Program-made: the position numbers and the translations under genes
Origin: an uncultured Pelagibacteraceae bacterium
GTDB lineage: Bacteria > Pseudomonadota > Alphaproteobacteria > Pelagibacterales > Pelagibacteraceae
NCBI GenBank assembly: GCA_902576375.1
Contig: CACGUZ010000003.1
Span: 62,001 to 126,000 of the forward strand
DNA: 64,000 nt
Direction of reading: 5' to 3'
Shown: positions 5,641-20,045 of the stretch, one piece after another
Layout: each line of letters starts with the position of its first letter
Position numbering within the stretch: position 1 is the first letter of the stretch
The notes under the pieces: generated by a model
Seen by the model: the letters and a program-made list of their open reading frames with translations, nothing else
Databases searched by the model: none
Told to the model about the DNA's origin: nothing

Positions 5641-5652
5641 TCTTTGCAAATA

Positions 5653-6081: not shown

Positions 6082-6091
6082 AAAATAAAAA

Positions 6092-6862: not shown

Positions 6863-6869
6863 TGTTAAT

Positions 6870-7412
6870 TTATTCCTCAACCTTTATTGGAGTTTGGTGA
6901 TACTCCTCTGTTTCAAAACTATAATTTAATTCATCAGCTATAGTATCAAGTGGAACCATATCATTTAGCATATTTTCAACTTTTGAAATTTCATTATCAT
7001 CTACTCCATTATGAAAAATCATACTTAAACTGCTTCCTCCACCAGTTGATCCTGCCCATAAATAATCAATATCTAAATCTAATTTATTCTCAATATTTCT
7101 GATATTATAAAAATTATTATAATCTTCATTATTATAAAAACTCTTTTCATTTTTGTCTTTGGAAATTGGTGTTAAGGAATTAATTGAACTGTTTATCAAA
7201 TTTTGTATTTCCGATATGTCATTGCAATCTTTAAATATTTTAACCTCATTAGAGTCAATAAATTCACGATCTATTCTTCCCCAATCTCTTTGAAAACTTA
7301 TCCATTTATTATGCTTTGCATCTTTATATTTATCATCTTTATGATATTCGGGATGAAGATCTATTAATGTTTCAACGACTAAATGTTGGGCTGGAATAAT
7401 TTTAAATTTCAT
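6870..7412 (-). CDS. hypothetical protein, 180 aa
   Basis: Not recognised. A soluble, acidic protein with a glycine/serine-rich stretch (WAGSTGGGSSLSM near residue 118-130) and no export signal. A TATTATAAT element lies directly upstream of the ATG, so it may have its own promoter and a very short or absent leader. It overlaps the extended frame of the next gene by 11 bp. Function unknown. Confidence 0.55.
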   Translation of the reverse strand: MKFKIIPAQHLVVETLIDLHPEYHKDDKYKDAKHNKWISFQRDWGRIDREFIDSNEVKIFKDCNDISEIQNLINSSINSLTPISKDKNEKSFYNNEDYNNFYNIRNIENKLDLDIDYLWAGSTGGGSSLSMIFHNGVDDNEISKVENMLNDMVPLDTIADELNYSFETEEYHQTPIKVEE

Positions 7413-7440
7413 AAATTATAATACGTTCTTTTTGTGTATA

Positions 7441-7938
7441 TCATTTGATCTTTGAGTTAATGACTATAAAATATTCATCAATTACTTTGTCGTGGCCATC
7501 TTTATCAACTTCTAAATTTAAATAATTAATATACCAATGATTACCATCACAATATTCTTTTTTGTTTTCAAGATCTCCTATCCCTTCAAGGTCATTTTTA
7601 ACAACAAATGAACCATCCGGTATATTTCCTTCCTGATTGAAAAAACCCCAAGATTTTCCTAAAGTTATTGGATTTAGTGATGAGACTCCTTTTGATAATT
7701 GATTACAAAATTTATCAGTGAATAATTTCCACATTTTTGATGAAGGATCCCACAAATCATCATACGAAATTGGTAATTCAGTGTCACCATCTTGTTTCCC
7801 CCAAAAATAAAATTTTTTATCTTTAAGTTCGATACATGTCTCCACAGTCTCTGACTGATCGGGATTATAGGGAGTTATGTACTCTGACTTACAATTCTCA
7901 GGAATATATCCTATTACAAGACGTTGAAGACTAGTCAT
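7441..7938 (-). CDS. hypothetical protein, 165 aa
   Basis: Not recognised. A soluble protein rich in aromatic residues (FYFWGKQDGD, GKSWGFFNQEG), with no membrane segment. The frame is open to 7977, but the ATG at 7938 (MTSLQRLV) is the better start because it overlaps the stop of the DUF4116 gene by only 8 bp. The longer version would overlap by 47 bp. It is therefore probably co-translated with the repeat protein. Confidence 0.55.
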   Translation of the reverse strand: MTSLQRLVIGYIPENCKSEYITPYNPDQSETVETCIELKDKKFYFWGKQDGDTELPISYDDLWDPSSKMWKLFTDKFCNQLSKGVSSLNPITLGKSWGFFNQEGNIPDGSFVVKNDLEGIGDLENKKEYCDGNHWYINYLNLEVDKDGHDKVIDEYFIVINSKIK

Positions 7939-9268
7939 TATTTTCTTCTTTATTATTGTATGATGATCCTGGATCATTCAATATTTCTTCAACAAAATCT
8001 AATGCCATTTTAAAATCTGGGCTATAATGATTAAGAAAATAATTATCATCTTCACCAACAACACCTAATACACCAAAATGAATTGCAAAAGATTTAATTA
8101 CACTTTTTGTTATAACTTTATGGTCTAAACATAAACTAGAAATTGTTAAATTAGTTGTTAAGATTCTGTCATTTATATACATAGTTTCATCATTTTTTGT
8201 ATTGTTAAATTCTTCGACAATTTTTTTAGGATCTATTTTTTTTATTCCAAAAAAGTCTAGTGTTTTTGAAATCAATACTGCTGATTGATGAATATAATTC
8301 TCTTTGTTAAATTTTTTTAATTCTAGATCTGGTTTATCATTGACAAGATTAGGTAAATTTTTTTTTACAATTTTTTCAACTATGTCTTGATTTATTTTTA
8401 TCCACTCCAAAGAACGATCTTGCCACCAACCGCCACCTGTAATTCCAAAATGGTCACTATTTTCAAGTGCTAAATTGATAATTTCTTTATCATCAGCCAA
8501 TTTTGCTTTTGATCGTGATAAGCTATCTAAAACATTTACTCCTTTTTCATTTATCATTAATGATTTAATAAAATCTTTGTCTTCGTATAATGTTTTATCT
8601 GCATAATCAAATGCATCAATACTTCCATCTAAAGCTGCTTTAACAATTTCTTTATCCTTTTTAAAATTTTCAGCAACGCATTGAAGTGCACTTTGCAGTC
8701 CTAAAGTGCTTACAGCTTTTAAAACAATCTCTCGGTCATTTTTAAAACTTTCATCAAGATATTCAATTGCTGTTCCATCTCGTTTGACTGCTTCTATAAC
8801 AATATCCCTATCTTTTTTTAAATCTGGGTGAGCATATTCAATTGCTGTTCCATTTTGTTTGACTGCTTCTATAACAATATCCCTATCCTTTTTTAAATTT
8901 TCATCTGCATGTTGAAGTGCCCATCCACTATTTTTTACTGCAACTAAAACAATTTCTTTATCCTTTTTTAAAGTATCATGCGCATCCCCAAGAGCATCAC
9001 CATTGTTCTTACAAGCTGCAAGCACAATTTCTTTATCTTTTTTTAAATTTTCATCTGCACGATTTAAACAAATGCCATCTTTCGTAACGGCAATTAAAAT
9101 TAGATCTCTATCTTTATAAAATTTTTTGTCAGCATTCTGTAAGCCCCCCATACCAGATGTTTTAATAGCTTCTAAAACAACATCCCTATCTTTTTTGAAT
9201 TCTTCAGACAATGTTTCTAGTGCAAAACCATCTTCTTTTACAATTTCTAAAGCTTCTTTTTTATCCAT
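7931..9268 (-). CDS. DUF4116-type repeat protein, 445 aa
   Basis: Residues 1 to about 270 are ten to eleven tandem copies of a 25-residue repeat with consensus KDKEIVLEAVKxxGxALxYA followed by xxxLK. This is the pattern of DUF4116, a family of unknown function. The remaining roughly 170 residues are unlike the repeats and unrecognised. Two adjacent repeats (about 8761-8900) are nearly identical at DNA level with a 75 bp period, showing recent tandem duplication. Such solenoids usually bind proteins; a binding role here is inference. Cytoplasmic, with no signal peptide. Confidence 0.75.
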   Translation of the reverse strand: MDKKEALEIVKEDGFALETLSEEFKKDRDVVLEAIKTSGMGGLQNADKKFYKDRDLILIAVTKDGICLNRADENLKKDKEIVLAACKNNGDALGDAHDTLKKDKEIVLVAVKNSGWALQHADENLKKDRDIVIEAVKQNGTAIEYAHPDLKKDRDIVIEAVKRDGTAIEYLDESFKNDREIVLKAVSTLGLQSALQCVAENFKKDKEIVKAALDGSIDAFDYADKTLYEDKDFIKSLMINEKGVNVLDSLSRSKAKLADDKEIINLALENSDHFGITGGGWWQDRSLEWIKINQDIVEKIVKKNLPNLVNDKPDLELKKFNKENYIHQSAVLISKTLDFFGIKKIDPKKIVEEFNNTKNDETMYINDRILTTNLTISSLCLDHKVITKSVIKSFAIHFGVLGVVGEDDNYFLNHYSPDFKMALDFVEEILNDPGSSYNNKEENND

Positions 9269-9275
9269 TATGAAA

Positions 9276-9428
9276 TTAAGATCTCACTAATATTGGTGCA
9301 CCTAACACATTACCTTCACCATATTGTGATTTAGCCATGTTTAAAGCTGCATGAACATCGGGTGCTTGAATGTTAATATCTACTATTCTGCCGCCATGAA
9401 GTCTTACTCTTACTCTAAATGTTTTCAT
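9276..9428 (-). CDS. small basic protein, 50 aa
   Basis: Translated by hand from the ATG at 9428. The sequence begins MKTFRVRVRLHGGRIVDINI, continues with an alanine-containing helix (APDVHAALNMAK) and ends in a strand (GAPILVRS). The beta-alpha-beta pattern and clean stop support a real gene. Its first 15 bases match the start of the 71-residue gene at 10074. No family is recognised. It fills an otherwise empty 200 bp gap. Confidence 0.55.
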   Translation of the reverse strand: MKTFRVRVRLHGGRIVDINIQAPDVHAALNMAKSQYGEGNVLGAPILVRS

Positions 9429-9469
9429 ATTTTATTCTAACATTTTCTTTTAGATTAGTAAGATTAATT

Positions 9470-9850
9470 TTATCTATTAATCAATTCAAATAATTCTTTA
9501 TCTTCCTCAAATTTTTTACTTGATGAAATTTTAGTGTTTTTTAAAACATTAAAATAACCATAAATATAAATACCACTAGTCAAAAGATTAATGAGTAACC
9601 AAAGTTCCTTCTCTAGATGAATTGGAAATACTGGATTAAATAAAATTAAAATTAAAGAAAAAATTATTATTGTTTCATTTATTCCTTTTGCTGATTTAAA
9701 TCCATAAAAGATAATTGTTCCTGAGGTAAAACAAATTATCATTTTAACAAATGCGTTGAATCCTGCGGTAACAGTAATCAAATTAGAAATAATTAATAAT
9801 CCTGCAGGAATAAAAAGAAATAATGCTAAGGTATTTTTGTTTTTAATCAT
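9470..9850 (-). CDS. small integral membrane protein, 126 aa
   Basis: Four hydrophobic segments of 18-22 residues (around 7-27, 30-50, 57-78 and 83-102) indicate a polytopic inner-membrane protein with a short charged cytoplasmic tail (SSKKFEEDKELFELINR). No family is recognised. It lies 8 bp after the small basic protein gene at 9859, in the same direction, so probably co-transcribed from the promoter element near 10108. Confidence 0.6.
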   Translation of the reverse strand: MIKNKNTLALFLFIPAGLLIISNLITVTAGFNAFVKMIICFTSGTIIFYGFKSAKGINETIIIFSLILILFNPVFPIHLEKELWLLINLLTSGIYIYGYFNVLKNTKISSSKKFEEDKELFELINR

Positions 9851-9858
9851 ATTTATTA

Positions 9859-10074
9859 TTAAATTGTTAAGTTGTGTTTAATTAGTTTTGGTGTCCAATA
9901 ACGCCTACCTGACGCAGTAACTTTCATATGCTGAATAGTTCCATTTTTTAACCATCGACCTCTTTTGGGAGGTTTAGGTTTTTTTACACGTATTGGTTTA
10001 TAGACAGGTCTCTTTTTTATCTTGAACTTGAAAGGTTTATATTTTTTTATTTTAAAAGGTCTAAATGTTTTCAT
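9859..10074 (-). CDS. small Lys/Arg/Pro-rich protein, 71 aa
   Basis: An extremely basic protein (KIKKYKPFKFKIKKRPVYK region), with Lys, Arg and Pro making up nearly half of it and no acidic residues. It is likely a nucleic-acid-binding or charge-neutralising protein, but no family is recognised. The first bases (MKTFR) and the sequence just upstream match those of the 50-residue gene at 9428. One of the four AGTGAA-N16-TTCACT palindromes lies 34 bp upstream. Confidence 0.55.
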   Translation of the reverse strand: MKTFRPFKIKKYKPFKFKIKKRPVYKPIRVKKPKPPKRGRWLKNGTIQHMKVTASGRRYWTPKLIKHNLTI

Positions 10075-10107
10075 ATTTAGACTTTAAACTAATTATGAAA
10101 TAATGTT

Positions 10108-10135
10108 AGTGAAGTGTCTATTGACCTATTTCACT
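10108..10135. promoter_or_regulatory. palindromic island promoter element, copy A
   Basis: AGTGAA (10108-10113), 16 bases, TTCACT (10130-10135). It lies upstream of the minus-strand gene at 9859-10074. The left flank (AATAATGTT) and part of the 16-base core match copy B at 11338. The exact 16-base spacing recurs in all four island copies, which points to a dimeric regulator's operator rather than a chance hairpin. Confidence 0.6.
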
Positions 10136-10431
10136 TAATCCTCAAAAGTAAAATCCTCATCTATAACTACATCTGGACTATTGTCGTCTAAATCTAAACT
10201 TTCTCTAGCTTCATTTTCATCACTAAACTTTTCAGAATTAAATACGTGCATTCCTCTTGGACTATAAATTGGTTTATCTCCAGTATCATAAGTTTCATCA
10301 ATGAGATGTCCTCTTCTTCCAGCCTTCTTTAATTTTTCTACAGCTTCTTTAATATCTTTAGCTTCAATCTCTTTAATACCTTCAAAATCATAAATTTTGT
10401 CAAATAAATACACTGCTTTAAATTTAGGCAT
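10135..10431 (-). CDS. hypothetical acidic protein, 98 aa
   Basis: Not recognised. Begins with a predicted strand (MPKFKAVYLFD), then a helix containing EAKDIKEAVEKLKKAG, and ends in a very acidic tail (DLDDNSPDVVIDEDFTFED). The beta-alpha arrangement resembles that of the 50-residue protein at 9276, but similarity is weak. Its start is one base from the stop of the gene at 10433-10696, indicating an operon. Its stop codon lies within promoter element A. Confidence 0.55.
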   Translation of the reverse strand: MPKFKAVYLFDKIYDFEGIKEIEAKDIKEAVEKLKKAGRRGHLIDETYDTGDKPIYSPRGMHVFNSEKFSDENEARESLDLDDNSPDVVIDEDFTFED

Positions 10432-10432
10432 A

Positions 10433-10696
10433 CTACTCTCCGTTAAGTTTTTTTAAAATTGTTTCGTATTCTTTTAACAATTCATCACTTTTATCACCAA
10501 TATGATCTACAAATCTACCTGGTGTCATTTCCATTTCAGGATCATCAGAACCATCATTTTTAAGATCTTCTAATGATAATTGATATTGTTCAGGAAATTT
10601 CTTCTTTAGTTGTTCTACTAATTCCTCTTCAAATTCAGAAGATTCATTGCCATACTTAGAATTAAGCTCGCTTATTTTTTTATTTAGGTTTGTCAT
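10433..10696 (-). CDS. hypothetical acidic helical protein, 87 aa
   Basis: Not recognised. Predicted helical and acidic (SSEFEEELVEQLKKKFPEQY), ending in LLKEYETILKKLNGE. The frame is open to an in-frame start at 10741, but that start lies inside a promoter (TTGAGT-N17-TAGAAT), so the ATG at 10696 (MTNLNKKI) is chosen. Together with the 98-residue gene it forms a two-gene unit. Confidence 0.6.
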   Translation of the reverse strand: MTNLNKKISELNSKYGNESSEFEEELVEQLKKKFPEQYQLSLEDLKNDGSDDPEMEMTPGRFVDHIGDKSDELLKEYETILKKLNGE

Positions 10697-10712
10697 AAAT
10701 ACTAAAAAAATT

Positions 10713-10741
10713 ATTCTATCAGTTATCTTTATATAACTCAA
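10713..10741 (-). promoter_or_regulatory. sigma70-type promoter for the 10696-10135 pair
   Basis: On the minus strand TTGAGT (10741-10736) is followed by 17 bases and TAGAAT (10718-10713). Transcription would start near 10706, about ten bases upstream of the ATG at 10696. This decides the start of the downstream gene. Confidence 0.55.
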
Positions 10742-10752
10742 ATATCTTTTAT

Positions 10753-11304
10753 TTATAAAGCCTTTGGATCATTTAAAAAAGTATAGTCAGAAAAACTTTC
10801 TTTATACTCTTTGTAAATTAAATTCTCAAATTGTCCCAAGGTAATCGTAGAGTCACCATCTCTATGATAAAAATTGATAAATAAATCATTAAGATTAACA
10901 CTTTCTTTTCCTAATAATTTATATCTTTCAAAAGAAATTTTCTGCCATTTTTTGGGAGTTGTATTTTTATTATTATTAGTACTGGTTAATTTTTGAATAT
11001 GAGAACTTAGTCTTTGTTTAATATTTGATAAAGTTTTACCAATATAAAAATATTTTAAATATTTATCAACAATTACATATATACCCTCAGAATTAGTTGT
11101 TAAATTTAAAAGATTGTTTTCATTAATCTTTAATTTAAAATTTGAAAATTCTTTGTTTGGTCTAAAGTAAAATGTTTTACCAATTTTAATTTTGTTAAAA
11201 CTACCATCCCAGTTTTCTACAAATTTTGGTGGGTAATAATCTACGATATTAGTAATTGGTATAAATTTATCTAAGTTCTTTTTCATATTTAATTGAGTTT
11301 TCAT
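10753..11304 (-). CDS. GIY-YIG nuclease-fold protein
   Basis: A central GIY-YIG domain is visible: GIYVI (74-78), FYIGKT (86-91), Arg98 in the following helix (SNIKQRLSSH), and Glu160 in FENLIYKEY as the likely metal-binding residue. The first 70 residues are not recognised. The family includes UvrC-type repair nucleases, homing endonucleases and restriction enzymes, and the compact single-domain form does not tell which. A second, different GIY-YIG protein follows at 11364, so repeated capture or a nuclease pair is possible. Promoter element B lies just upstream. Confidence 0.75.
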   Translation of the reverse strand: MKTQLNMKKNLDKFIPITNIVDYYPPKFVENWDGSFNKIKIGKTFYFRPNKEFSNFKLKINENNLLNLTTNSEGIYVIVDKYLKYFYIGKTLSNIKQRLSSHIQKLTSTNNNKNTTPKKWQKISFERYKLLGKESVNLNDLFINFYHRDGDSTITLGQFENLIYKEYKESFSDYTFLNDPKAL

Positions 11305-11337
11305 ATTTTAAATATAATACAAATTACAAATATTGTT

Positions 11338-11365
11338 AGTGAAGTCCTTGTTGATCTATTTCACT
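11338..11365. promoter_or_regulatory. palindromic island promoter element, copy B
   Basis: AGTGAA (11338-11343), 16 bases, TTCACT (11360-11365), with the palindrome extending to TTAGTGAA/TTCACTAA. On the minus strand, TTCACT (11343-11338) is followed after 18 bases by TATTAT (11319-11314), a plausible -35/-10 pair ahead of the gene starting at 11304. Confidence 0.65.
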
Positions 11366-12185
11366 AAAATAAACTGATTAAATTAGGTAGCAAATCAATA
11401 ATTTTCTTTTTATCATTTAGATATATTTTAAGTAATTTTTTATCTAAATAATATGGTAAATATTTTCCAAAGGCGTTTCCATTTCGAACTTTTTCCTCTG
11501 GAAATTTTTTCAAAATTAGTTTTTCAAATTCTTTTTTTACTTTAGAGGAGACAGGTATAAAGTTAATTGTAAAATATGTTCCAGACTTAGGGGGCATACG
11601 TATTTGTATTTGTAATATTTTAGAAAAAATAGGTATGGGGATTAACAAGCAGGGATCCATAGGTGTTAAGATTATTGGCTCGCTTATATTAATTGTTGGA
11701 TAAAAATGTAGAAGATCCTCTTTTAAATCGTTTAATTTAGTTAAGATCTTATTGTCTCTAATTTGATTTTTATATATTTTTGTATACTCACCTGTATGAA
11801 CATGAAGTTGCCTTTCTTGATCAATACCCGGTAAATCTATAAAATTTTTGTCTCTTAGATGAGAATGTGGACGTATCAAACTATGACCATGACCAAATAC
11901 TTCATTTGTTAAATTTTCTTTACCATAAACCCATTTAATTAGAGTTGACTCAACACTGAAAGCTTCTTTTTCAGTTTCATATCTTCCAATTATTCTTGTA
12001 ATTAATTTAAAACCAGTTTTTTCAATTTCTTTTATCTTTATTCCTTTTTGCTTTTCTTCTCCTGGTTTATGATCAAAATTTCTAAAACCTTGCCCTTTAC
12101 CTACATAAAATATCTCATAATTGCGTGGATCAATTAAAACATAAACAAAATATTTCAATAACTCATCTTTATTTTTACCTGTCAT
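11364..12185 (-). CDS. GIY-YIG protein of the LEM-3/ANKLE1-like type
   Basis: The N-terminal domain has YVLID (15-19), FYVGKGQGFR (26-35) and a Glu79 in EAFSVESTLIKW. This is the pattern of the LEM-3-like GIY-YIG subfamily found in many bacterial proteins and in animal LEM-3/ANKLE1. Residues 110-273 are unrecognised and may be a DNA- or protein-binding domain. Length 273. It is distinct in sequence from the GIY-YIG protein at 10753. Cytoplasmic. Confidence 0.75.
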   Translation of the reverse strand: MTGKNKDELLKYFVYVLIDPRNYEIFYVGKGQGFRNFDHKPGEEKQKGIKIKEIEKTGFKLITRIIGRYETEKEAFSVESTLIKWVYGKENLTNEVFGHGHSLIRPHSHLRDKNFIDLPGIDQERQLHVHTGEYTKIYKNQIRDNKILTKLNDLKEDLLHFYPTINISEPIILTPMDPCLLIPIPIFSKILQIQIRMPPKSGTYFTINFIPVSSKVKKEFEKLILKKFPEEKVRNGNAFGKYLPYYLDKKLLKIYLNDKKKIIDLLPNLISLF

Positions 12186-12263
12186 TTTTAATCATCCTTA
12201 AATATTTATTCACCTTTTTTACGGAACAAATAACTTTGATCTGTCATTATCTTGTTAAATTAA

Positions 12264-12389
12264 TTAGATTTTTGTTAAAATAATTAATTGAACTACTAAT
12301 ATAATTACAGGAACAATGGTTCTTATGAGTTCCATAGTGTGATTTACTTCATCAAGTTTTCTCTCTAGTTTTGATCTATTGTTTTTCAT
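12264..12389 (-). CDS. 41-aa single-pass membrane peptide
   Basis: Translated by hand from the ATG at 12389. Residues 1-20 are charged (MKNNRSKLERKLDEVNHTME) and residues 22-40 form one transmembrane helix (IRTIVPVIILVVQLIILTK). It lies 17 bp downstream of the channel gene in the same direction, so it is probably the last member of that operon. It could be a channel subunit, regulator or small toxin; the sequence alone does not say. Confidence 0.5.
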   Translation of the reverse strand: MKNNRSKLERKLDEVNHTMELIRTIVPVIILVVQLIILTKI

Positions 12390-12406
12390 TTAATGTGCCT
12401 TTCTTT

Positions 12407-14935
12407 TTATAAAATATGTAAATGTCTATTACCTTTAATCATCTCTAAGTCATTGAAGTTTGCAATTGTAATTAATCGATCTCCCTCATCTAAATCAATT
12501 TGTTTTTTTTGTTCTGGGTTAATGGAAATACTTTTAATTTTTCTTTTTGATAAATAAAAATCATAATCAATAATACCAATTAAGACCTCATTTTTGCTTT
12601 GAAAGTATTTTTCAAGCTCACAAAATGTTGTTGATAATGACTTGTCTAATAATGTGTGGGATTTTAATGTATGAGCCCGTTTAAATAATAAGTTTATTAA
12701 ATCAGAATTATTCATATCAAATGTTGCTGCAGCAATATATTTACTAATAATAGAGTTTATTTCTACAACATCATTTCCAATAGTTGGGCTGAAATATTTA
12801 TATTTAAAATCTTCCAATATCTTTTTAGTTCGATACCCATTAACTTCGGTAATCAAAGATTGATCATTTAATATCCTTGAAAATCCAACAAAGTTGTTAA
12901 TCATCGCATGATCTTCTATAGGATTTTCTCTAAATTTTTGTATTTGTTGATTAGACTCATTTAATAAAATGATACAATTACTCTGTTCAAATTCTTTATT
13001 ATAATCAAGAACTTTGTCTATATTAGTAATATCTTCAGAAAGTTTATCTAAATTTTTTTGTATAGTATTTATTTTAATATCTTCTTGGAAACTTTTCTTT
13101 TTTGATTCAATTTTGTCAAATTCCTTCAAAATTTTTGTTTTGCAATCTAATACTTCTGTTTTTGAAATTTCTAAAAATTCAATTTTTCCAGTATCATATT
13201 TTTTCAAGATTATTATAATTTCATTATTTTCATTCAAAATATTATTTAATTTTATTTTAAATTTGTTTTCAGTGCCTCCTGCCCATTTTGTATAAATACA
13301 ATATTCTTTTTCATCCAAATTTTTTTTCAAATCTTTTTTTTTTATAATATTAAGAATTTCATCAGCAGGTTTGATCTTTGAATATAAAGGCGAATTTTGA
13401 TTAACCTTATACACTTGAAATTTATAATAATGCTCATGATCTGTATCAATCCTGTGGAAAATAATACCTAAATTAATTAATTCATTTTCTTCAGAAGAAT
13501 TAATCTTTGTTGAAAAATTAATATTATTAAGTTCGTCAACTTTTTCATTATGATAAATATCAATTTTTTTTAGATTATTGTAATAATTTGAGCTAACCAA
13601 TTTTCCAACAATTTTTGTAAGATATTCTTTATTTTTTTCCTTACTAAAATCTAAAAGAGAAATGTTGAGATCTTGATCATCTTGTTTAAAATTTGGATCG
13701 ATATCTTTTACCTCTTTTTCGTGACTTTCTAATTCATTTAATTCTTTTATTATTTGATCCTCATTTTCAGCTATACAGATAATTCCAAAGTTTTTTGTCA
13801 GCGGAAAGTTAATTGGGGTATTTAAAAAAATCTTATTAAGGACTTTATTTTTGTTTTGATCTTTATAAAAAAAACCAATTACAATTATATTATCACATAA
13901 TCTATTTAAATCTTTAATATTTTTACCAATGTTTTTATTTAAAACTTCTTTAAATTTTGATTTATCTGGATCAACAAAATATATCTCTGAACCTTCATAG
14001 CCAAAAAGATTATCATATATTTCAGTTAGATCTGGTGTGTTTGTACATTGAGATAAAATATCACTTTTTAATTCCTGTGAACTGACAAGTTCTGGCACAT
14101 AATCATTTCCTACCTTGCCAATTTTTTTACCCCAAATATCCATGCTAAACATAAGATGAGAAAGACCTGATTTTTCATTATGAAACTCACTGAAAATTTT
14201 ACACGGTTTTTTATTATATTCTTTGGAACCGATAATCGATGAAACACTTTTACCTACTTCGACATCACAATCCATTTCTGTTTTAAACAATTCATTAATA
14301 TCAGGCTTTAAAATTATTACTTGTTTAGCTTTTTCTAAATTAATTTTATCTAATAAACTTTTTTGCCAAGCGTATCCTTTTCTTGCAAGAATAGTTATGT
14401 TTTTTGGAATTTTGATTACATTTTTTATTTTCTCCATTACAACCAAAGGTTCCTCATTCGAAACAACAACAAAAGATTGTTTTTCATTTTCATAAGCTTT
14501 ACAAAGTTCAGTTAAGAGAGGAATTAATCTTCTACTAAAATTAAAAAATATTATGTGATTTTCCTCTTCTATTTTAGTTTTACCAGTTCGTAATTCTTCA
14601 ATTCTGTTTGATATTAAATTAGTAATTATACCGATGATTGATGAAAAAATTAAAATTCCAAATATAGTTATATTGAATTTAAAGAAATAATCTAAAAAAG
14701 TATTTTTATCATCTAGACTAAAAAATGCTTCGGTAACAAAAAATAATCTAAATCCTTGCCATAAAGTCTCAGTATAAAAGTTATTTTCAGATAAAACTCC
14801 TAATTCTTGTAAAACAAAAATTAGAGTAGATATAACAGTAACTCCAATAAAACTTAGAAATAAAAAAAAGATAATTAAATATAACAAATCTTTCTCAAAT
14901 GCTTTGTTGAAACTATACTTAATGAATTTCCACAT
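12407..14935 (-). CDS. CASTOR/POLLUX-type ion channel with PDZ-like insertion
   Basis: An 842-residue membrane protein. TM helices at about 17-43 and 86-108 flank a pore segment. They are followed by EELRTGKTKIEEENHIIFF (113-131), which matches the junction of CASTOR/POLLUX channels into the first RCK domain, and by the family signature around ELKSDILSQC (288-297) and YEGSEIYF (313-320). A related second half (DVVEINSIISKYIAAATF, 722-739) ends in a TrkA-C-like segment. Residues about 485-585 look like a PDZ domain (VYKVNQNSPLYSKIKPADEI), which the family does not normally have. It is probably a K+ or Ca2+ channel. It is four bases from the 98-residue gene upstream. Confidence 0.75.
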   Translation of the reverse strand: MWKFIKYSFNKAFEKDLLYLIIFFLFLSFIGVTVISTLIFVLQELGVLSENNFYTETLWQGFRLFFVTEAFFSLDDKNTFLDYFFKFNITIFGILIFSSIIGIITNLISNRIEELRTGKTKIEEENHIIFFNFSRRLIPLLTELCKAYENEKQSFVVVSNEEPLVVMEKIKNVIKIPKNITILARKGYAWQKSLLDKINLEKAKQVIILKPDINELFKTEMDCDVEVGKSVSSIIGSKEYNKKPCKIFSEFHNEKSGLSHLMFSMDIWGKKIGKVGNDYVPELVSSQELKSDILSQCTNTPDLTEIYDNLFGYEGSEIYFVDPDKSKFKEVLNKNIGKNIKDLNRLCDNIIVIGFFYKDQNKNKVLNKIFLNTPINFPLTKNFGIICIAENEDQIIKELNELESHEKEVKDIDPNFKQDDQDLNISLLDFSKEKNKEYLTKIVGKLVSSNYYNNLKKIDIYHNEKVDELNNINFSTKINSSEENELINLGIIFHRIDTDHEHYYKFQVYKVNQNSPLYSKIKPADEILNIIKKKDLKKNLDEKEYCIYTKWAGGTENKFKIKLNNILNENNEIIIILKKYDTGKIEFLEISKTEVLDCKTKILKEFDKIESKKKSFQEDIKINTIQKNLDKLSEDITNIDKVLDYNKEFEQSNCIILLNESNQQIQKFRENPIEDHAMINNFVGFSRILNDQSLITEVNGYRTKKILEDFKYKYFSPTIGNDVVEINSIISKYIAAATFDMNNSDLINLLFKRAHTLKSHTLLDKSLSTTFCELEKYFQSKNEVLIGIIDYDFYLSKRKIKSISINPEQKKQIDLDEGDRLITIANFNDLEMIKGNRHLHIL

Positions 14936-14939
14936 GATT

Positions 14940-15236
14940 TTAATTTACGTTTTTATCTCTGAATTGTCGATAATCTTTTATAAAGTTTTTTATTAGTTCG
15001 TAATATTCATCATTCTTAATTTCTTTAAAAACTTCATCTCTTGCTAAGATTACTGATTTGTCTTCTTTAACTTTTATTCCATTATTAATTTTAAATCTTT
15101 GATGAAGAATTCTTGCTATCAAAATAAGTTCGGACGTTACTTCAAGGTCATGATCTACTCTTTCATCTCTAAATTGTCCTAAAATAAAACTAATAACTTC
15201 TGTTACTTTGGTCTCTGAATTAATAAGTTTTTGCAT
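14940..15236 (-). CDS. hypothetical protein, 98 aa, between nuclease and channel
   Basis: Not recognised. Predicted all-helical and charged, with no membrane segment or signal peptide; ends DYRQFRDKNVN. The ATG overlaps the nuclease stop by one base (TAATG) and the channel gene starts four bases after its stop. The three are therefore one translational unit. It may bridge nuclease and channel, but that is only inferred from position. Confidence 0.65.
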   Translation of the reverse strand: MQKLINSETKVTEVISFILGQFRDERVDHDLEVTSELILIARILHQRFKINNGIKVKEDKSVILARDEVFKEIKNDEYYELIKNFIKDYRQFRDKNVN

Positions 15237-15904
15237 TACTTCATTACCTTTTTAAAGTTACATACGCCACAAGTAGAAGTAGGCTCAGGTTTAGTTTTAG
15301 AATACAAAACATCTTGAATTTTTGTAATATAACCAATTAGATCTTTATCATCTCTTGGTATATCAAACCATTGAGTATCCATAACCATGTTACAATTATT
15401 TTTTCCTAACTCTGTAATATCACTTGGCTCAAAACAAAAAATTCCTAATCGCTTTACTGGAGTTAGTTTAAGACTACCCTCTTTGGGTTTTTGCATCATC
15501 AATGCATAGGTTTGTAACTGAGTTGCATAAGTATCAATTTTATTTTCATCAATTTTTGTTGTTTTAAAATCAACGATAGTAAATGAGTCTTTGTGTTTGA
15601 TATAACTATCTATGTAACCACTTAGTGTAAAAGGTCTATCTTTAAGATCGTACAAAATTTCTGATTGTAACCTTTTATTATAATCTCCAACTATTTTACC
15701 ATCTTCAAGTTTATCTGAAAGAAGCTTACTGGATTTTCCATGATAAAATTTTTTTTGAAGACTATCAAATTTTGAAAAAATCCCAGGAAATGGAACTTTT
15801 AATTCAATACCATTAATTTTTTTATCATAGTAACAACTATTGCAAGCTTCAAAGCCAAATGCAAACTCACTTGGTGAATAATTAATTATATTTTGATTTT
15901 TCAA
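15236..15904 (-). CDS. Cas4-like PD-(D/E)XK nuclease with cysteine quartet
   Basis: A 222-residue protein of the RecB/Cas4-type PD-(D/E)XK superfamily. Asp99 lies in SGYID, VDFKT gives Asp112 and Lys114, and QLQTYA (129-134) is the conserved QxxxY helix. Cys21 and Cys24 (ACNSC) with Cys212 and Cys215 (TCGVC) look like an Fe-S cluster site, arranged 2+2 rather than the 1+3 of typical Cas4. No cas1 or CRISPR is present. The start is TTG with a good AGGAG 8 bases upstream. It is first gene of the operon with the channel. Confidence 0.75.
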   Translation of the reverse strand: MKNQNIINYSPSEFAFGFEACNSCYYDKKINGIELKVPFPGIFSKFDSLQKKFYHGKSSKLLSDKLEDGKIVGDYNKRLQSEILYDLKDRPFTLSGYIDSYIKHKDSFTIVDFKTTKIDENKIDTYATQLQTYALMMQKPKEGSLKLTPVKRLGIFCFEPSDITELGKNNCNMVMDTQWFDIPRDDKDLIGYITKIQDVLYSKTKPEPTSTCGVCNFKKVMK

Positions 15905-15959
15905 TATTAATCTCCTTTGTTATTAGTAATGATATTACTCTGATTATTAAATTTTGTTT

Positions 15960-15987
15960 AGTGAAAGGTTTGGGGTTGATTTTCACA
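15960..15987. promoter_or_regulatory. palindromic island promoter element, copy C
   Basis: AGTGAA (15960-15965), 16 bases, TTCACA (15982-15987), with one mismatch from the other copies. It sits between the divergent nuclease operon (start 15904) and the regulator-like gene (start 16011). A TTGATT hexamer inside the core (15976-15981) is followed by TAACTT after 17 bases, which would give a nearly leaderless transcript for the plus-strand gene. Confidence 0.55.
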
Positions 15988-16010
15988 AGTTTAAAAATTA
16001 ACTTATAAAT

Positions 16011-16475
16011 ATGGCGGGATATCCAAGAAAACTATTATCTCTAGAATTAGCTCTTAAAAATATTATTAAGGAGTTAAAAAAAGATGAGATAAAGGAAATA
16101 ACTGGAAAAAGTGAATCTCATTTTAGAAAATGTACTGATGAGCAAGACTTAGATCACAATATTCATCACTTAGACTCTGTTCGGCTTGATCTAGAATTCA
16201 GAAGAAGAAAACTTGGAAGCCCCATGCTTGAAGCCCACGAGTCTATGCTTGAAGCTGCAGACTTAAAACTTGGAAAACTTGATAATACCTCCAATACATT
16301 AATAGATATAAGTGCTAAAATTGGCAGACTAATGGAAGCTACTAAAGATGCTATAGAAGTAGATAGTGAAGGCGGCACTAAATTTAGTAAAAATGAAAAA
16401 GAAAAAATTAATATTGCAATTGAAGAAGTAGAAAAAAAAATATTAACTTTAAAACAGATTATTGATAGCAACTAA
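16011..16475 (+). CDS. possible phage CII-like helical regulator
   Basis: A 154-residue, probably all-helical protein. The first 65 residues (ALKNIIKEL, ITGKSESHFRKCTD, HLDSVRLDL) resemble, by eye, the helix-turn-helix arrangement of phage CII-type regulators in alphaproteobacteria. The C-terminal half is a probable coiled coil (KEKINIAIEEVEKKILTLKQ) suited to dimerisation. It is divergent from the nuclease-channel operon across palindrome C, which fits an autoregulated repressor. The family call is tentative. The stop overlaps the neighbouring convergent gene by four bases. Confidence 0.5.
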   Translation: MAGYPRKLLSLELALKNIIKELKKDEIKEITGKSESHFRKCTDEQDLDHNIHHLDSVRLDLEFRRRKLGSPMLEAHESMLEAADLKLGKLDNTSNTLIDISAKIGRLMEATKDAIEVDSEGGTKFSKNEKEKINIAIEEVEKKILTLKQIIDSN

Positions 16476-17290
16476 ATCATTGAATACTGCATAAATGCAG
16501 CACTAACATCTTTATCGAGTTTCATTGAATTATCAACAAAGTCATAACTTTCTCTATTTTGTTTTATGGCCTCTATAATTATTTCTTTATTTTTTCGAAG
16601 ATGACCCTCTACAAAACTAATCGATAATCCATTTTGTTTAACAGCTACAAGCGCTAAGTTAAGGTCATCCTTATATACATCTGGAATATATTTTAAACAA
16701 TAACCATTTATTTTAACTAATTTTTCTAAAAACAAATAATTTAATCTTAATTTTGGATCTATAAACCTTAGTATATAACCATGTTCCTTAATGCATTTTT
16801 CTATAAAGGTTTTATCTCTCTTATATTTTTTGGGTAATAACTCAAAAGCATATCCATGATATTTTACTGCAGAAAATAAGAAATTAGGATCTCTTAAAAA
16901 TTTTCTACCCACAAATTGTAGTGCCCAACCATCAGATTTAATTGCTTCGAATACTATTTCCTTATCTTCTTTAAATATTTGGTCGGCATATTTTAAAGCA
17001 AATCCACATTGTTTTACTGCTGTAAACACAATCTCTCTATCTTTCTTTAATTCATCAGACACAAATTCCAGCATTAAACCGTATTTTTTTAGCGAGGCTA
17101 AAACAATCTCACGATCATTTTTTAAATTTTCTGGTACATCATAATATACAAAACTTTCATGACGTATAGCTTCTAATACAACTTCTTTATCTGCTCTTAA
17201 AATATTGTCTAGTTTATCGTAAGTGATTTTACCACATGCAATATCATTTAATGTTTTTGATTTTAGTTTTTTATAAAATTCTTTTTCCAT
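16472..17290 (-). CDS. DUF4116-type repeat protein, 272 aa
   Basis: Almost the whole protein, from about residue 33, is nine or ten tandem 25-residue repeats of the pattern KDREIVFTAVKxxGFALKYA plus xxxxK, the same repeat as in the gene at 7931. Unlike that gene there is no long C-terminal domain. A solenoid-like protein-binding role is likely but unproven. It is divergent from the exported-protein cassette, with palindrome D between them. A TGTATA hexamer 18 bases from the TTCACT half implies a very short leader. Confidence 0.75.
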   Translation of the reverse strand: MEKEFYKKLKSKTLNDIACGKITYDKLDNILRADKEVVLEAIRHESFVYYDVPENLKNDREIVLASLKKYGLMLEFVSDELKKDREIVFTAVKQCGFALKYADQIFKEDKEIVFEAIKSDGWALQFVGRKFLRDPNFLFSAVKYHGYAFELLPKKYKRDKTFIEKCIKEHGYILRFIDPKLRLNYLFLEKLVKINGYCLKYIPDVYKDDLNLALVAVKQNGLSISFVEGHLRKNKEIIIEAIKQNRESYDFVDNSMKLDKDVSAAFMQYSMI

Positions 17291-17324
17291 AAATATTTTT
17301 TATACAACTAGCTTATCAAAACAT

Positions 17325-17352
17325 AGTGAAACGAGTTATCCTTCATTTCACT
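17325..17352. promoter_or_regulatory. palindromic island promoter element, copy D
   Basis: AGTGAA (17325-17330), 16 bases, TTCACT (17347-17352). It lies between divergent genes starting at 17290 and 17387. Leftward, TTCACT is followed after 18 bases by TGTATA (rc of 17301-17306). Rightward it is followed after 19 bases by TATAAG (17372-17377). The outer half-sites may thus be -35 elements for both directions. Confidence 0.65.
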
Positions 17353-17386
17353 AACAATATTATGATTTAGGTATAAGTTTACTTAT

Positions 17387-17677
17387 ATGAAAAAACAAAA
17401 CTTAAAAAAAAAAATAATGATTACACTTACAGTGTTTATCATCTCTATACAGCCTGTTAATGCAAATGAAAATAACTTTAATGAGTTTACTCAAAAATTT
17501 AATGAGTTTTTAAAATGTTTCAAAGACAATGTTAAAGAAGAATTTGAAGAAACTAAAGAGTTTCAAATAAAAAAATGGAAAGAAGCTAAAAATCAAAATA
17601 AAAAAACACTTTCAGTTGTTCAGCATAAATTAACTGGTTTTTTTTCAGATTTTCCAAACCCAAAAGGAGATAAATAA
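17387..17677 (+). CDS. small exported protein, 96 aa
   Basis: A signal peptide is clear: a lysine-rich start, a hydrophobic core at about 10-22, and a likely cleavage after VNA. The mature part is a charged helix (FKDNVKEEFEETKEFQIKKW). No family is recognised. It is first gene of a plus-strand cassette of exported proteins and its stop overlaps the next ATG as TAATG. Confidence 0.6.
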   Translation: MKKQNLKKKIMITLTVFIISIQPVNANENNFNEFTQKFNEFLKCFKDNVKEEFEETKEFQIKKWKEAKNQNKKTLSVVQHKLTGFFSDFPNPKGDK

Positions 17678-18246
17678 TGAATAAAACAATTAGGATTATA
17701 ATCGCTACTTTATTAAGTCTTACATTATTTAATTGTAGCACATACACGGTTAAAAAAGATATGTCGAAAAGAGGTGAGCTTACTAAAACACCTAAATGGT
17801 ACATAAAATACAAGCGTGAAGATAAAAAATGGATGTATGAGACTGCTTCGAGTGTTTCGCCTGATTTAGAGTTAGCAGTTAAAAAATCCACTATATTAGC
17901 AAAAGCTAAGTTAGCTGATCGGATTAATGGTAAAATGAATAATCAGTCTTCAATAAATAAAAGTGAAACTGGTATAGATGAGAATAATAATATTACAGGT
18001 TCCGCCGAAGACACTATAATTAATTTAATTAACGACACTCTTGTAAGAGATTATATTGTTGAAAAAGTAGAGATATTTTATACACATCACAAATCTTATA
18101 GAGCATATGTAAAGCTTAAAGTTTCAAAAGAAAATGTTTCTTTAGTAATTCAAGAAATAAAAGCTGATAAAAAACTTGTTCAAAACAATAAAAATCAAAA
18201 AAAATTATCATCTAAAGTAAAAGAGGTTTTAAAAAATCTTGATTAA
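17677..18246 (+). CDS. lipoprotein, LPP20-like
   Basis: A lipobox LFNC at about residue 17-20 follows a hydrophobic signal sequence, so it is likely a membrane-anchored lipoprotein. The region PKWYIKYKREDKKWMYETAS, and the following segment with AVKKSTILAKAKLADRI, resembles the LPP20 lipoprotein family by eye. GGAG lies 8-11 bases before the ATG. Coupled to the preceding gene (TAATG); the next gene overlaps its end by 8 bp. Function unknown. Confidence 0.6.
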   Translation: MNKTIRIIIATLLSLTLFNCSTYTVKKDMSKRGELTKTPKWYIKYKREDKKWMYETASSVSPDLELAVKKSTILAKAKLADRINGKMNNQSSINKSETGIDENNNITGSAEDTIINLINDTLVRDYIVEKVEIFYTHHKSYRAYVKLKVSKENVSLVIQEIKADKKLVQNNKNQKKLSSKVKEVLKNLD

Positions 18247-18583
18247 AAATATAATTATTCTGGTTCTAGGGTTCTTTGTTTGGCTTGCTTACTTTGATGA
18301 AGCACATTCTGCTAATCAAGAAAATCAATACTGTGATATCAAAACGACTCTTGTAAAAACGGTGGATAAAAACGGAAAAACTATAAATGAAGAGAGTAAA
18401 GAAATAGTTGAATGTGACGATGGAGTAAAACATTTTTTACAAGATGCGGGAATTGCTAAAGAATGTAAATACTATAACTGGACAGGAATTGAAGGTTATA
18501 CTCCAATAGAATACCGATCTTTAGCCTGTGAAAAATTAGATGGAGGATATGAAATTATTCCAAATTATACTGGTATTGAGTAG
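18239..18583 (+). CDS. small exported protein with conserved cysteines, 114 aa
   Basis: Not recognised. The frame begins with a TTG at 18239 inside the end of the previous gene, and the first 24 residues form a signal peptide ending AHSA. The mature part has four cysteines (QYCDI, IVECDD, KECKY, LACEKL) that could form two disulfides in the periplasm. It overlaps the following lipoprotein gene by about 35-44 bp, which is long for this genome. Confidence 0.5.
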   Translation: MIKNIIILVLGFFVWLAYFDEAHSANQENQYCDIKTTLVKTVDKNGKTINEESKEIVECDDGVKHFLQDAGIAKECKYYNWTGIEGYTPIEYRSLACEKLDGGYEIIPNYTGIE

Positions 18584-19061
18584 TTTTTTTTTACTTAATA
18601 ATTGTGTGGGTGTTGCCCCTGAAAAAGTAAATATAAACAAAATAAAAAAAGAGAGAAAACTTCCGGATCCAAATTTTTTTATACCTGATGCAATGTATGT
18701 GACTGCAGGAAATGGTCATCGATGGGATTTAAGGCAATTTATGGATTTTAGATTTTGGTCTCCACCATACTTTAATACCAAAGAGGCAAAACAACACGAG
18801 AGTGCCGTTCATATGGCATTAACACACGCAAAAGATTTTGAAATTGTTAGTTGGTATAGTGAAAGTCGTGATGCGGGAGGGAAAGTAAGACCTATATTTA
18901 CTTACCAAACAAATGCAAGCCTGTGCAGAGATTATCAATCTTTTTTATATATAGATAAAAAAGCTAGATCAAAAACTTTTACTGCTTGTAAAGGAATAGC
19001 CTGGAATGGTTTACTTTTTAATTATTGGGATTGGCCAGGTGCAGAAAAATATTTAAATTAA
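18540..19061 (+). CDS. lipoprotein with 17-kDa surface-antigen-type domain
   Basis: A hydrophobic leader ends in lipobox LNNC (about residue 19-22); an alternative ATG at 18549 gives MKLFQII. The C-terminal part from about residue 85 has HxxAVHMALTHA, SWYS, GKVR, TYQTNASLCRDYQSFLYI and a final TACK. This follows the pattern of the rickettsial 17-kDa antigen and related RT0821-type surface proteins. The gene at 19596 has the same domain, so the two are paralogues flanking the pilin gene. Probably outer-membrane anchored. Confidence 0.65.
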   Translation: MEDMKLFQIILVLSSFFLLNNCVGVAPEKVNINKIKKERKLPDPNFFIPDAMYVTAGNGHRWDLRQFMDFRFWSPPYFNTKEAKQHESAVHMALTHAKDFEIVSWYSESRDAGGKVRPIFTYQTNASLCRDYQSFLYIDKKARSKTFTACKGIAWNGLLFNYWDWPGAEKYLN

Positions 19062-19063
19062 TT

Positions 19064-19582
19064 ATGACAAAAAATATAAAAACTCATAAAGGATTTACTT
19101 TAATAGAATTGTTAGTGGTGGTGGCAATCATAGGCATTATATCTTCCGTCGGTATAGTCGCTTATAATGGTTACACCAATTCGGCAAAAAGAAATGCAAC
19201 CATCGCTCAGCACAAAATAGCTGTAAAATTCATTAAACATAAACTAGCTTTGTGTATGACTAATGGTGGTGGTTCATTGCCAATAAATTCTAAATATTCA
19301 ATTAACTGTGAACTTGATAATAATGCTGGTGGAATAAATGATTTAAATAATATCTTTATAAATTATTTTTTAGAACAAGGTTGGAAAAATCCATATGGTG
19401 ATAAAAATCCTGTTGTTTATGCAGGAAGAAATAGCAGTAAGGATTTTAACGGAAGAATGCGTTTTGATGAAACTGAATGTTCAAGTGGTTCATCAAAAAA
19501 ACAAATATCGCTTTGGGTTAAGACGCATAAAAACGAGGATTATAAACCTACTTTAATAAGTATGGATGGGTGGTGCAATTAA
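19064..19582 (+). CDS. type IV pilin-like protein
   Basis: The prepilin signature KGFTLIELLVVVAIIGII is present right at the N-terminus from the ATG at 19064, with Gly before the cleaved bond and Glu at position +5. A long hydrophobic helix follows, and the globular part holds cysteines that could form a disulfide (ALCMTN, NCELDN). The frame extends upstream to 19025, but the prepilin leader makes 19064 the start. No pilus assembly ATPase or prepilin peptidase is in the window, so it depends on machinery elsewhere. Confidence 0.85.
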   Translation: MTKNIKTHKGFTLIELLVVVAIIGIISSVGIVAYNGYTNSAKRNATIAQHKIAVKFIKHKLALCMTNGGGSLPINSKYSINCELDNNAGGINDLNNIFINYFLEQGWKNPYGDKNPVVYAGRNSSKDFNGRMRFDETECSSGSSKKQISLWVKTHKNEDYKPTLISMDGWCN

Positions 19583-19595
19583 GTTGATAAAACGA

Positions 19596-20039
19596 ATGAT
19601 AGTAAGGACTTTCTTTTTAATTTTAATAACTCTTCTATTAACAAATTGCTCAACTACCAATCATACAAAAACTGAAAAAAAAATACTTGATTATGAAAGT
19701 TCAGGTTCTGTATTAAATGCTCTTTCTCTTGGGGTTCCAGGTGCTGCTATTCTTTTTTTGACTGTGGATATAAATAATTATTTAAAATTTAATCTTAACG
19801 AAAAAGAAATCAAAATGCACACAGATGCAATACAAATTGCACTAAATAATACTCCAAATGGTAAAATAGTTTCATGGTATAATGGGGATAGATTATCTTC
19901 AGGAAAAGTTAGAGTTGTAAAAACTTATTATAAAAATGATAGATATTGTAGAATTTTTCAATCTTATATTAAATTAAACGGCGCTAAAAAACATAATACT
20001 AAACATGTTTGCAAAGTTAATAATGTTTGGAAGTTTTAA
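19596..20039 (+). CDS. lipoprotein with 17-kDa surface-antigen-type domain, paralogue
   Basis: From the ATG at 19596 the leader MIVRTFFLILITLLLTNC ends in a lipobox; a longer frame starts at 19566 inside the pilin gene. The region from about residue 90 repeats the pattern of the lipoprotein at 18540: HTDAIQIAL, SWYN, GKVRVVKTYY, CRIFQSYI and a final VCKV. The pair therefore arose by duplication or joint capture. It ends seven bases from a convergent glycosyltransferase gene, marking the right edge of the island. Confidence 0.65.
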   Translation: MIVRTFFLILITLLLTNCSTTNHTKTEKKILDYESSGSVLNALSLGVPGAAILFLTVDINNYLKFNLNEKEIKMHTDAIQIALNNTPNGKIVSWYNGDRLSSGKVRVVKTYYKNDRYCRIFQSYIKLNGAKKHNTKHVCKVNNVWKF

Positions 20040-20045
20040 GCTTTT

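What the first reader, a model, noticed from the sequence alone, without database searches (positions are those of the whole stretch)
12407..14935. PDZ-like domain inserted into a CASTOR/POLLUX-type channel
The N-terminal pore and first RCK region match the family well, but at 842 residues it carries an extra region. Residues about 485-585 have PDZ character, including the VYKVNQNSPLYSKIKPADEI segment. A PDZ domain could gate the channel through a peptide C-terminus, for example that of the neighbouring 98- or 41-residue protein.
Basis: partly seen in the sequence, partly recalled or inferred. Interest (0 to 1): 0.6.

Follow-up and report, generated by a model that had tools for sequence, protein, structure and literature searches.

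The report
PDZ-fold insert in SAR11 ion-channel relative
A rare marine-bacterial relative of the plant CASTOR/POLLUX ion channels carries a PDZ-like peptide-docking domain that ordinary relatives lack, and its own added C-terminal tail, rather than a neighbouring protein, is the best guess for what docks there.

Summary
The ORF is real: minus strand, 14935..12407, 842 aa, in SAR11 (Pelagibacteraceae). Seven distinct long forms (842-855 aa) carry about 174 residues (476-649) in RCK2; three short SAR11 relatives (719-720 aa) and ten other bacterial relatives lack them. Sequence profiles call no PDZ, but AlphaFold2 on residues 474-616 (best model pLDDT 77.5) gives a PDZ fold: all 50 structural rows listed are PDZ proteins (title or recall), best Z 8.3 (CtpA). 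The PDZ reading stands as a predicted fold. The proposed ligands fare badly: the 98-aa neighbour ends in Asn, and the 41-aa peptide is missing from 4 of 8 loci and ends a hydrophobic segment. The long forms also carry a tail of about 16 residues ending in a conserved Leu, a better candidate. The pore does not match well: the filter Gly is lost in all seven long forms and the Asp in this one. CASTOR/POLLUX homology is clear but distant. The channel forms a trio with a Cas4-like PD-(D/E)XK protein and the 98-aa protein in every long-form locus compared, here on a clean 15-kb island with GIY-YIG genes. Function is untested.

The parts
12407..14935 (-). 842-aa CASTOR/POLLUX-related channel homologue, long (PDZ) form
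14804..14887 (-). first transmembrane helix, residues 17-44 (approximate)
   Evidence: predicted helix in the low-confidence full-length model and hydrophobicity; aligned with relatives
14702..14737 (-). selectivity-filter region, residues 67-78; VTEAFFSLDDKN here, DQNAIF... in other long forms, DVGTIS... in short forms
13736..14584 (-). RCK1 (residues about 118-400), with the PF06241 match at 288-398
13511..13693 (-). start of RCK2 (residues 415-475), aligned with the short forms
12989..13510 (-). insert, residues about 476-649, absent from short forms and from ten other bacterial relatives
13160..13480 (-). PDZ-fold domain, residues about 486-592
   Evidence: profile alignment to SAR11 PDZ domains
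12989..13162 (-). helix (about 592-616) and linker to residue 649
12458..12988 (-). rest of RCK2 (residues 650-826)
12410..12457 (-). C-terminal tail, residues 827-842, ending HLHIL; only in long forms
14940..15236 (-). 98-aa protein, immediately upstream of every long form examined
15236..15904 (-). Cas4-like PD-(D/E)XK protein, 222 aa, TTG start
12264..12389 (-). 41-aa hydrophobic peptide, present beside some long forms only

Best explanation
A rare accessory SAR11 membrane protein: two probable transmembrane helices with a pore loop, then two RCK domains of CASTOR/POLLUX ancestry (homology shown). A PDZ-fold domain sits between the second and fourth strands of the RCK2 Rossmann lobe, where the third strand and helix would be (insertion shown by alignment; strand numbering and PDZ fold rest on alignment reading and prediction). 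A short C-terminal tail ending in Leu occurs with it (shown). Inferred mechanism: four subunits form a gating ring; the PDZ groove captures the tail of its own or the next subunit and holds the ring in one state; a partner, perhaps a member of the conserved three-gene operon, releases it, so that peptide occupancy joins or replaces Ca2+ as the gating signal. My odds: PDZ fold 0.85; the groove binds a peptide 0.5; the ligand is the protein's own tail 0.35.
For: Insert in 7 of 7 distinct long forms, absent in 3 of 3 short SAR11 forms and 10 of 10 other bacterial relatives aligned. Insert model pLDDT 77.5, pTM 0.73. Foldseek's four best PDB hits are PDZ domains of a CtpA-type protease, HtrA, Prc and PulC, probability 0.99-1.00. 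All 50 VIA rows are PDZ proteins by title or recall, best Z 8.3, rmsd 2.5, 83 aligned (a second look at Foldseek's own hits, not independent). Insert against SAR11 PDZ sets (28 sequences): hhalign probability 5.6, 16.3, 1.2 and 22.8%, against at most 0.69% for six other parts of the same protein, with NSPL..I.P.DEIL.I in PDZ register. L-G-[IL]-I-F stands where the carboxylate loop would be in 7 of 7. Tail in 7 of 7 long and 0 of 13 others, last residue Leu in 7 of 7. Purifying selection on the PDZ.
Against: No Pfam or PDB sequence search names a PDZ; the best Pfam matches of the insert members were others, DUF5457 (E 0.0047) and Rtt102p (E 0.0076), each in 3 of 6 members, judged chance. The five AlphaFold models of the insert scored 77.5, 70.0, 51.1, 46.6 and 42.3. 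Foldseek E-values are weak: none at or below 0.001. Most VIA rows lie below Z 8, which the tool warns can be a common arrangement. Against the RseP-type PDZ set the insert (1.20%) barely exceeds the membrane part (0.69%). The full-length model failed (pLDDT 35.6), so tail docking and the placement of the PDZ in the ring were not tested. A hydrophobic last residue is not rare: 16 of 58 window ORFs end in L, I, V or F. The altered filter leaves open whether it conducts at all.
Confidence: 0.4

Rival explanations
1. The PDZ-fold domain is structural: it adds contacts within or between gating rings and binds no peptide terminus. The tail is a separate elaboration.
For: The PDZ diverges fast (35% identity between the window's and L013's insert segment, against 61% overall); dN/dS up to 0.47. 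No sequence profile recognises it as a canonical PDZ.
Against: The L-G-[IL]-I-F loop and the S.L stretch stay conserved in 7 of 7, and PDZ and tail occur together.
Confidence: 0.25
2. Pseudo-channel: the altered filter no longer conducts, and the RCK-PDZ body serves as a membrane-anchored sensor or scaffold for the nuclease-like and 98-aa proteins.
For: Filter Gly lost in 7 of 7 distinct long forms and the filter Asp in 3 of 7, including the window. In CASTOR the D265N mutant gave no current (PMC6697748, passages). The trio is conserved.
Against: The membrane and pore region stays under purifying selection (dN/dS 0.00-0.18 in seven pairs); filters vary in this family (Asp in 8 of 10 and Gly in 9 of 10 other bacterial members).
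Confidence: 0.2
3. The ligand comes from a neighbour, as the first reader proposed (98-aa or 41-aa protein).
For: The 98-aa gene adjoins every long form compared, and its 3 hits in 201 genomes were all in genomes with the long channel. The 41-aa peptide ends T-K-I, a textbook class I PDZ ligand (motif recalled).
Against: The 98-aa protein ends in Asn in 8 of 8 loci read. The 41-aa gene was not found in 4 of 8 loci, and its end closes a hydrophobic segment.
Confidence: 0.1
4. The insert is not a PDZ; the AlphaFold2 model from six sequences is a chance resemblance.
For: Wide spread of model confidence; weak Foldseek E-values; no PDZ in sequence searches.
Against: All 50 structural rows listed are PDZ proteins by title or recall, and a separate profile comparison puts the same residues in PDZ register.
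Confidence: 0.12

Closest known systems
CASTOR / POLLUX / DMI1 nuclear ion channels and their bacterial relatives (PF06241)
   Same: Pore loop followed by two RCK domains; PF06241 above cut-off; the profile of 18 relatives including this one matches the CASTOR gating ring at E 5.7e-92; the glutamate aligned with CASTOR E493 (Ca(II) site) is kept as E317, as in 17 of 18 sequences.
   Different: PDZ-fold insert in RCK2, added C-terminal tail, two probable instead of the plants' four transmembrane segments, selectivity filter changed; CASTOR D442 and D444 align with N253 and K255 here (by my count; D442 is Asp in L003 and L013).
PDZ domains of bacterial CtpA/CtpB, Prc, HtrA/DegS and PulC
   Same: Predicted fold; register of the NSPL..I.P.DEIL.I segment.
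   Different: Those are attached to proteases or secretion proteins; this one is inserted in an RCK domain that should face the cytoplasm (inferred), and no sequence profile recognises it.
BK/Slo and MthK RCK-gated channels
   Same: RCK gating-ring ancestry.
   Different: No TVGYG-type filter here; I recall no BK or MthK chain with a PDZ inside it, PDZ domains being on partner proteins in animals (recalled, not searched).

Membership tests
CASTOR/POLLUX-type channel | Castor_Poll_mid (PF06241) above its cut-off | tested here: met
   28.4 bits against 26.7 for the window protein; 9 of 9 members of A1 match at the E limit of 10
CASTOR/POLLUX-type channel | Two tandem RCK domains after the pore | tested here: met
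   alignment along both RCK domains with bacterial relatives and CASTOR
CASTOR/POLLUX-type channel | Filter with the conserved Asp and Gly (CASTOR AD265(S/A)GNHA) | tested here: not met
   window has V67 and E69; Gly absent in 7 of 7 and Asp in 3 of 7 distinct long forms. It is therefore filed as a divergent homologue, not as a proven functional member
CASTOR/POLLUX-type channel | Tetrameric gating ring; Ca2+-regulated Ca2+ conduction | not testable with these tools
   no multimer prediction available; full-length model failed
PDZ domain | PDZ fold | tested here: met
   predicted structure only:
PDZ domain | Recognised by PDZ sequence profiles | tested here: not met
   no PDZ family for 9 full-length members or 6 insert members; profile-profile only weak. 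It is therefore called PDZ-fold, not a confirmed PDZ family member
PDZ domain | Carboxylate-binding loop (G-hydrophobic-G-hydrophobic or variant) | tested here: inconclusive
   L-G-[IL]-I-F at the start of the strand in 7 of 7: the second half of the motif fits, the first Gly is replaced
PDZ domain | Binds a C-terminal or internal peptide | not testable with these tools
   needs a binding assay or co-folding
Cas4-type PD-(D/E)XK nuclease (upstream neighbour) | PD-(D/E)XK core and cysteine pairs | tested here: inconclusive
   PDDEXK_1 34.5 bits against 22; Cas4 TIGR00372 31.6 bits against cut-off 65; CNSC, VDFKTTK, QLQTYAL and a C-terminal CxxC are visible in the window and the six relatives printed (cysteine role recalled)

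The most novel reading that the evidence does not exclude
The PDZ-bearing channel is the membrane arm of an undescribed three-gene mobile cassette (Cas4-like nuclease, 98-aa protein, PDZ-RCK channel), possibly anti-phage. The nuclease or the 98-aa protein senses an event and, by displacing the channel's own tail from its PDZ, opens or shuts the pore: a gating-ring channel controlled by peptide occupancy instead of a small ligand.
Probability: 0.12. Interest if true: 0.8.

Novelty: new variant of a known kind. Interest (0 to 1): 0.52.

Why it matters
Known RCK gating rings respond to ions or small molecules (recalled; for CASTOR, Ca2+, PMC6697748 passages). A PDZ-fold domain in RCK2 that occurs together with a Leu-ending tail would be a channel carrying both the peptide reader and a candidate peptide in one chain, testable with a single purified domain. 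The short SAR11 relatives provide a natural with-and-without comparison. The conserved link to a Cas4-like protein on a genomic island also gives a first handle on why a streamlined ocean bacterium keeps it.

Tried and rejected
Sequence searches for a PDZ failed: Pfam on 6 window proteins, on 9 full-length members and on 6 insert members (best matches DUF5457 E 0.0047 and Rtt102p E 0.0076, 3 of 6 members each, judged chance); PDB by profile of the insert (three hits, SRP68 and U1A, best E 0.16, judged chance). A weak DUF2779 match at residues 612-671 (14.7 bits against a cut-off of 23.3; 1 of 9 members) was not pursued. PHROGs and NCBIfam gave only matches judged chance for the channel (best E 0.34 and 0.13), PADLOC none. 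Full-length AlphaFold2 with six sequences gave pLDDT 35.6 and was not used for any claim on domain packing or tail docking; it shows two strand or bridge residues at 840-841, which I do not count as evidence.

Viral and plasmid origin: no relative in viral contigs by two scans, which reach close relatives only, none in phages; plasmids gave one distant Deinococcus TrkA-like hit over 37% of the protein. No phage origin is claimed. The idea that the insert is standard in the family was rejected on the 3 short SAR11 and 10 other bacterial relatives aligned. The Pfam scan used 27 of the 32 non-SAR11 PF06241 loci held (the searches listed more matches than were fetched); five (L036, L043, L046, L050, L053) were left out because the longest frame in the locus did not look like the channel. 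Only the ten aligned look CASTOR-like; 17 of the 27 also match Ion_trans and look like other K+ channels. That output showed 25 of its 27 matching families, with no PDZ among those shown. Phyla other than the window's own were not sampled. The 41-aa and 98-aa proteins as ligands were considered and ranked low. Papers: CASTOR+POLLUX+PDZ and PDZ+'RCK domain'+channel+bacterial each returned 0 papers; 'PDZ domain'+RCK+channel returned 30, of which the 15 listed looked like animal or medical work from titles and abstract starts; CASTOR+POLLUX+RCK+bacteria 11 (10 listed); CASTOR+POLLUX+prokaryot+'ion channel' 16 (8 listed); a SAR11 island search 8. Of all these only PMC6697748 was opened, and only passages of it were seen.

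Full report
Observation. The coordinates hold a single 842-aa frame on the minus strand. The window lies in a 1.17-Mb, 18-contig genome, and the protein is matched at 100% over its whole length by a contig titled uncultured Pelagibacteraceae bacterium AG-912-C16: this is SAR11. Homology to CASTOR/POLLUX is real but distant: PF06241 28.4 bits against a cut-off of 26.7, Slo-like RCK below cut-off, CASTOR chain 6o6j at E 1.6e-6. A profile built from this protein and 17 relatives matches CASTOR at E 5.7e-92 (the relatives carry much of that score).

Distribution. Matches occur in 5 of 297 genomes of the family sample, 7 of 399 of the genus sample and 5 of 297 of the order sample; these samples overlap, and many genomes are incomplete. 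Two length classes exist. Long forms (842-855 aa) came from the window, L002, L003 and L009-L016: 11 sequences, of which L002, L014 and L015 are identical to L010, L011 and L009, and L016 differs from the window at one position, so I count seven distinct. Short forms (719-720 aa) are L004, L005 and L017, 37-39% identical to the window's. No relative was found in viral contigs (two scans) or phages, and one distant partial hit in plasmids.

The insert. MAFFT shows a large insertion in the long forms. Profile alignment of long against short forms puts the shared stretches at residues up to about 475 and from about 650 (the first of these matches is weak on its own, 1.2%). The insert of about 174 residues thus lies between the second and fourth strands of the RCK2 Rossmann lobe, where the short forms have about 40 residues (strand assignment is my reading of the alignment). 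Ten other bacterial relatives, 619-749 aa, lack it. No PDZ was among the 25 of 27 Pfam families shown for 27 PF06241 proteins, only ten of which look CASTOR-like. The insert is thus not standard in the family, within the window's phylum as sampled.

Is it a PDZ? Sequence searches do not say so: no PDZ family, and chance-level hits to others. The best of five predicted structures of residues 474-616, from six sequences, has pLDDT 77.5 and pTM 0.73, with strands and helices in PDZ order by my reading; the other four scored 70.0 to 42.3. Foldseek against the PDB puts PDZ domains first (Vibrio CtpA-type protease, HtrA, Prc, PulC; probability 0.99-1.00; best E 8.1e-3, none at or below 0.001). VIA-align, a second look at Foldseek's own hits, gives Z 8.3 for CtpA (rmsd 2.5, 83 aligned), with 5 of 990 chains at Z 8 or more on the whole model; all 50 rows listed are PDZ-containing proteins (for MamP, the M61 peptidase and the entries titled only by protease name this is recalled). 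Profile-profile comparison with 28 PDZ sequences from SAR11 genomes gave probabilities of 5.6% (Ctp), 16.3% (Deg), 1.2% (RseP) and 22.8% (all) for the insert. Six other parts of the same protein gave at most 0.69%, so the RseP set separates little, and the hits put NSPL..I.P.DEIL.I in the PDZ register (grouping into Ctp, Deg and RseP is mine, by position in the locus). I take the fold as probable (0.85), not proven.

Selection. Nei-Gojobori dN/dS for the PDZ is 0.04-0.14 in five of seven pairs and 0.40 and 0.47 in the two with L013; the linker has the highest dN of the listed regions in three of seven pairs, and the second half of RCK2 has 0.009-0.10 (synonymous sites are near saturation in the more distant pairs, so these ratios are rough). 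The domain is kept by selection but changes quickly.

Ligand. Long forms run about 16 residues beyond the family's normal end, N-F-N-D-L-E-... to R-H/Y-L-H/N-I/M-L; 7 of 7 end in Leu. The 3 short forms and 10 other relatives end 2-7 residues past the position of window residue 824 and have no such tail. PDZ and tail therefore occur together, which makes self-binding the most economical reading. Against over-reading this: 16 of 58 window ORFs end in L, I, V or F, and the full-length model was too poor (pLDDT 35.6) to test docking. The 98-aa protein is conserved but ends in Asn (NVN, NIN or TVN) in 8 of 8 loci read. The 41-aa peptide is in 4 of 8 loci (3 of 7 distinct), and in L011 and L012 another gene starts there directly. 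Its T-K-I end would suit a class I PDZ (recalled motif), but it closes a hydrophobic segment that probably spans the membrane.

Pore and Ca2+ sites. CASTOR's filter is AD265(S/A)GNHA and D265N abolished channel activity (PMC6697748, passages). The aligned positions in the window are V67 and E69. Gly is lost in 7 of 7 distinct long forms, Asp in 3 of 7; short forms keep both (3 of 3); other bacterial members keep Asp in 8 of 10 and Gly in 9 of 10. The glutamate aligned with CASTOR E493 is kept (E317; 17 of 18 sequences); D442 and D444 align with N253 and K255, D442 being Asp in L003 and L013 (CASTOR residue names, numbering offset by my count). Conduction and Ca2+ control are therefore open questions, and I file this as a divergent homologue.

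Surroundings. Immediately upstream, in the order PD-(D/E)XK, 98 aa, channel, the frames touch: the first stop overlaps the next ATG, and four bases separate the 98-aa stop from the channel ATG. The 98-aa and PD-(D/E)XK genes adjoin the long channel in all seven other loci compared (L002, L003, L009-L013). The PD-(D/E)XK protein was found in 5 of 5 long-form genomes and 0 of 3 short-form genomes searched, the latter 80-92% complete, and the 98-aa protein in 3 of 201 genus genomes, all with the long channel. The PD-(D/E)XK protein resembles Cas4 with CxxC pairs at both ends.

Island. The genes flanking the region, rlmE-like (4444-5055) and pssA-like (20960-21763), lie 0.01-0.92 kb apart in 7 of 7 complete same-genus genomes but 15.9 kb apart here (gene names recalled from sequence character). 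Against G003, 91-93% identical in DNA on both sides, the break is clean at 5057 and 20042 with an 11-base overlap that is T-rich. In G035 the channel lies at 813 kb, far from its own rlmE-pssA site at 554-556 kb, which has no such island, so the cassette occurs at more than one chromosomal site. Two GIY-YIG proteins next to it match PADLOC PD-T4-3 (E 3.6e-15) and UzuA (E 6.5e-6). This makes a defence role worth testing; it does not show one.

Verdict. A search of the held open-licence library for CASTOR, POLLUX and PDZ together returned no paper. I call it a new variant of a known kind.

Noticed in passing
window 5058-20041: A clean island of about 15 kb between genes that are at most 0.92 kb apart in 7 of 7 complete same-genus genomes; the empty site was seen directly in G003 (L097), 91-93% identical in DNA.
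   Followed up: yes
window 15236-15904 and 14940-15236: A Cas4-like PD-(D/E)XK protein with CxxC at both ends and a 98-aa protein form a trio with the long channel in all 8 loci compared; the PD-(D/E)XK protein was not found in 3 of 3 genomes with the short channel.
   Followed up: partly
window 11364-12185 and 10753-11304: Two GIY-YIG proteins matching PADLOC PD-T4-3 (3.6e-15) and UzuA (6.5e-6); L011 and L012 carry a relative of the first directly after the channel.
   Followed up: no
window 14702-14737; L010 and L011 channel genes: The filter region has two alleles (VTEAFF, DQNAIF) that differ between otherwise close sequences: L010 against L011, dN 0.26 over residues 62-82 and 0.017 in RCK1. 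It looks like allele exchange or local selection at the pore.
   Followed up: partly
window 12407-15904; L011, L016 (G390): The operon is mosaic: the window's 98-aa protein is 97% identical to L011's while the channels are 74%; G390's channel differs from the window's at one position while its 98-aa protein is 87% identical.
   Followed up: no
L057 3929-4714, L058 11160-11882: One gene away from the short-form channel lies what looks by eye like a six-helix K+ channel with a TTIGYGD filter (L059's contig ends before it could be seen); L057 and L058 also carry look-alikes of small genes of the window's island (by eye).
   Followed up: no
window 16472-17290, 7931-9268: Proteins built of a repeat like KKDKEIVLEAVK (recalled as DUF4116-like, not scanned in Pfam here) flank the channel operon.
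   Followed up: no
window 19025-19582: A pilin-like protein (GFTLIELLVVVAIIGI; recalled motif) inside the island.
   Followed up: no
window 12264-12389: A 41-aa probably membrane-spanning peptide ending T-K-I just downstream of the channel, identical in L009, one residue different in L010, and not found in L003, L011, L012 or L013.
   Followed up: partly
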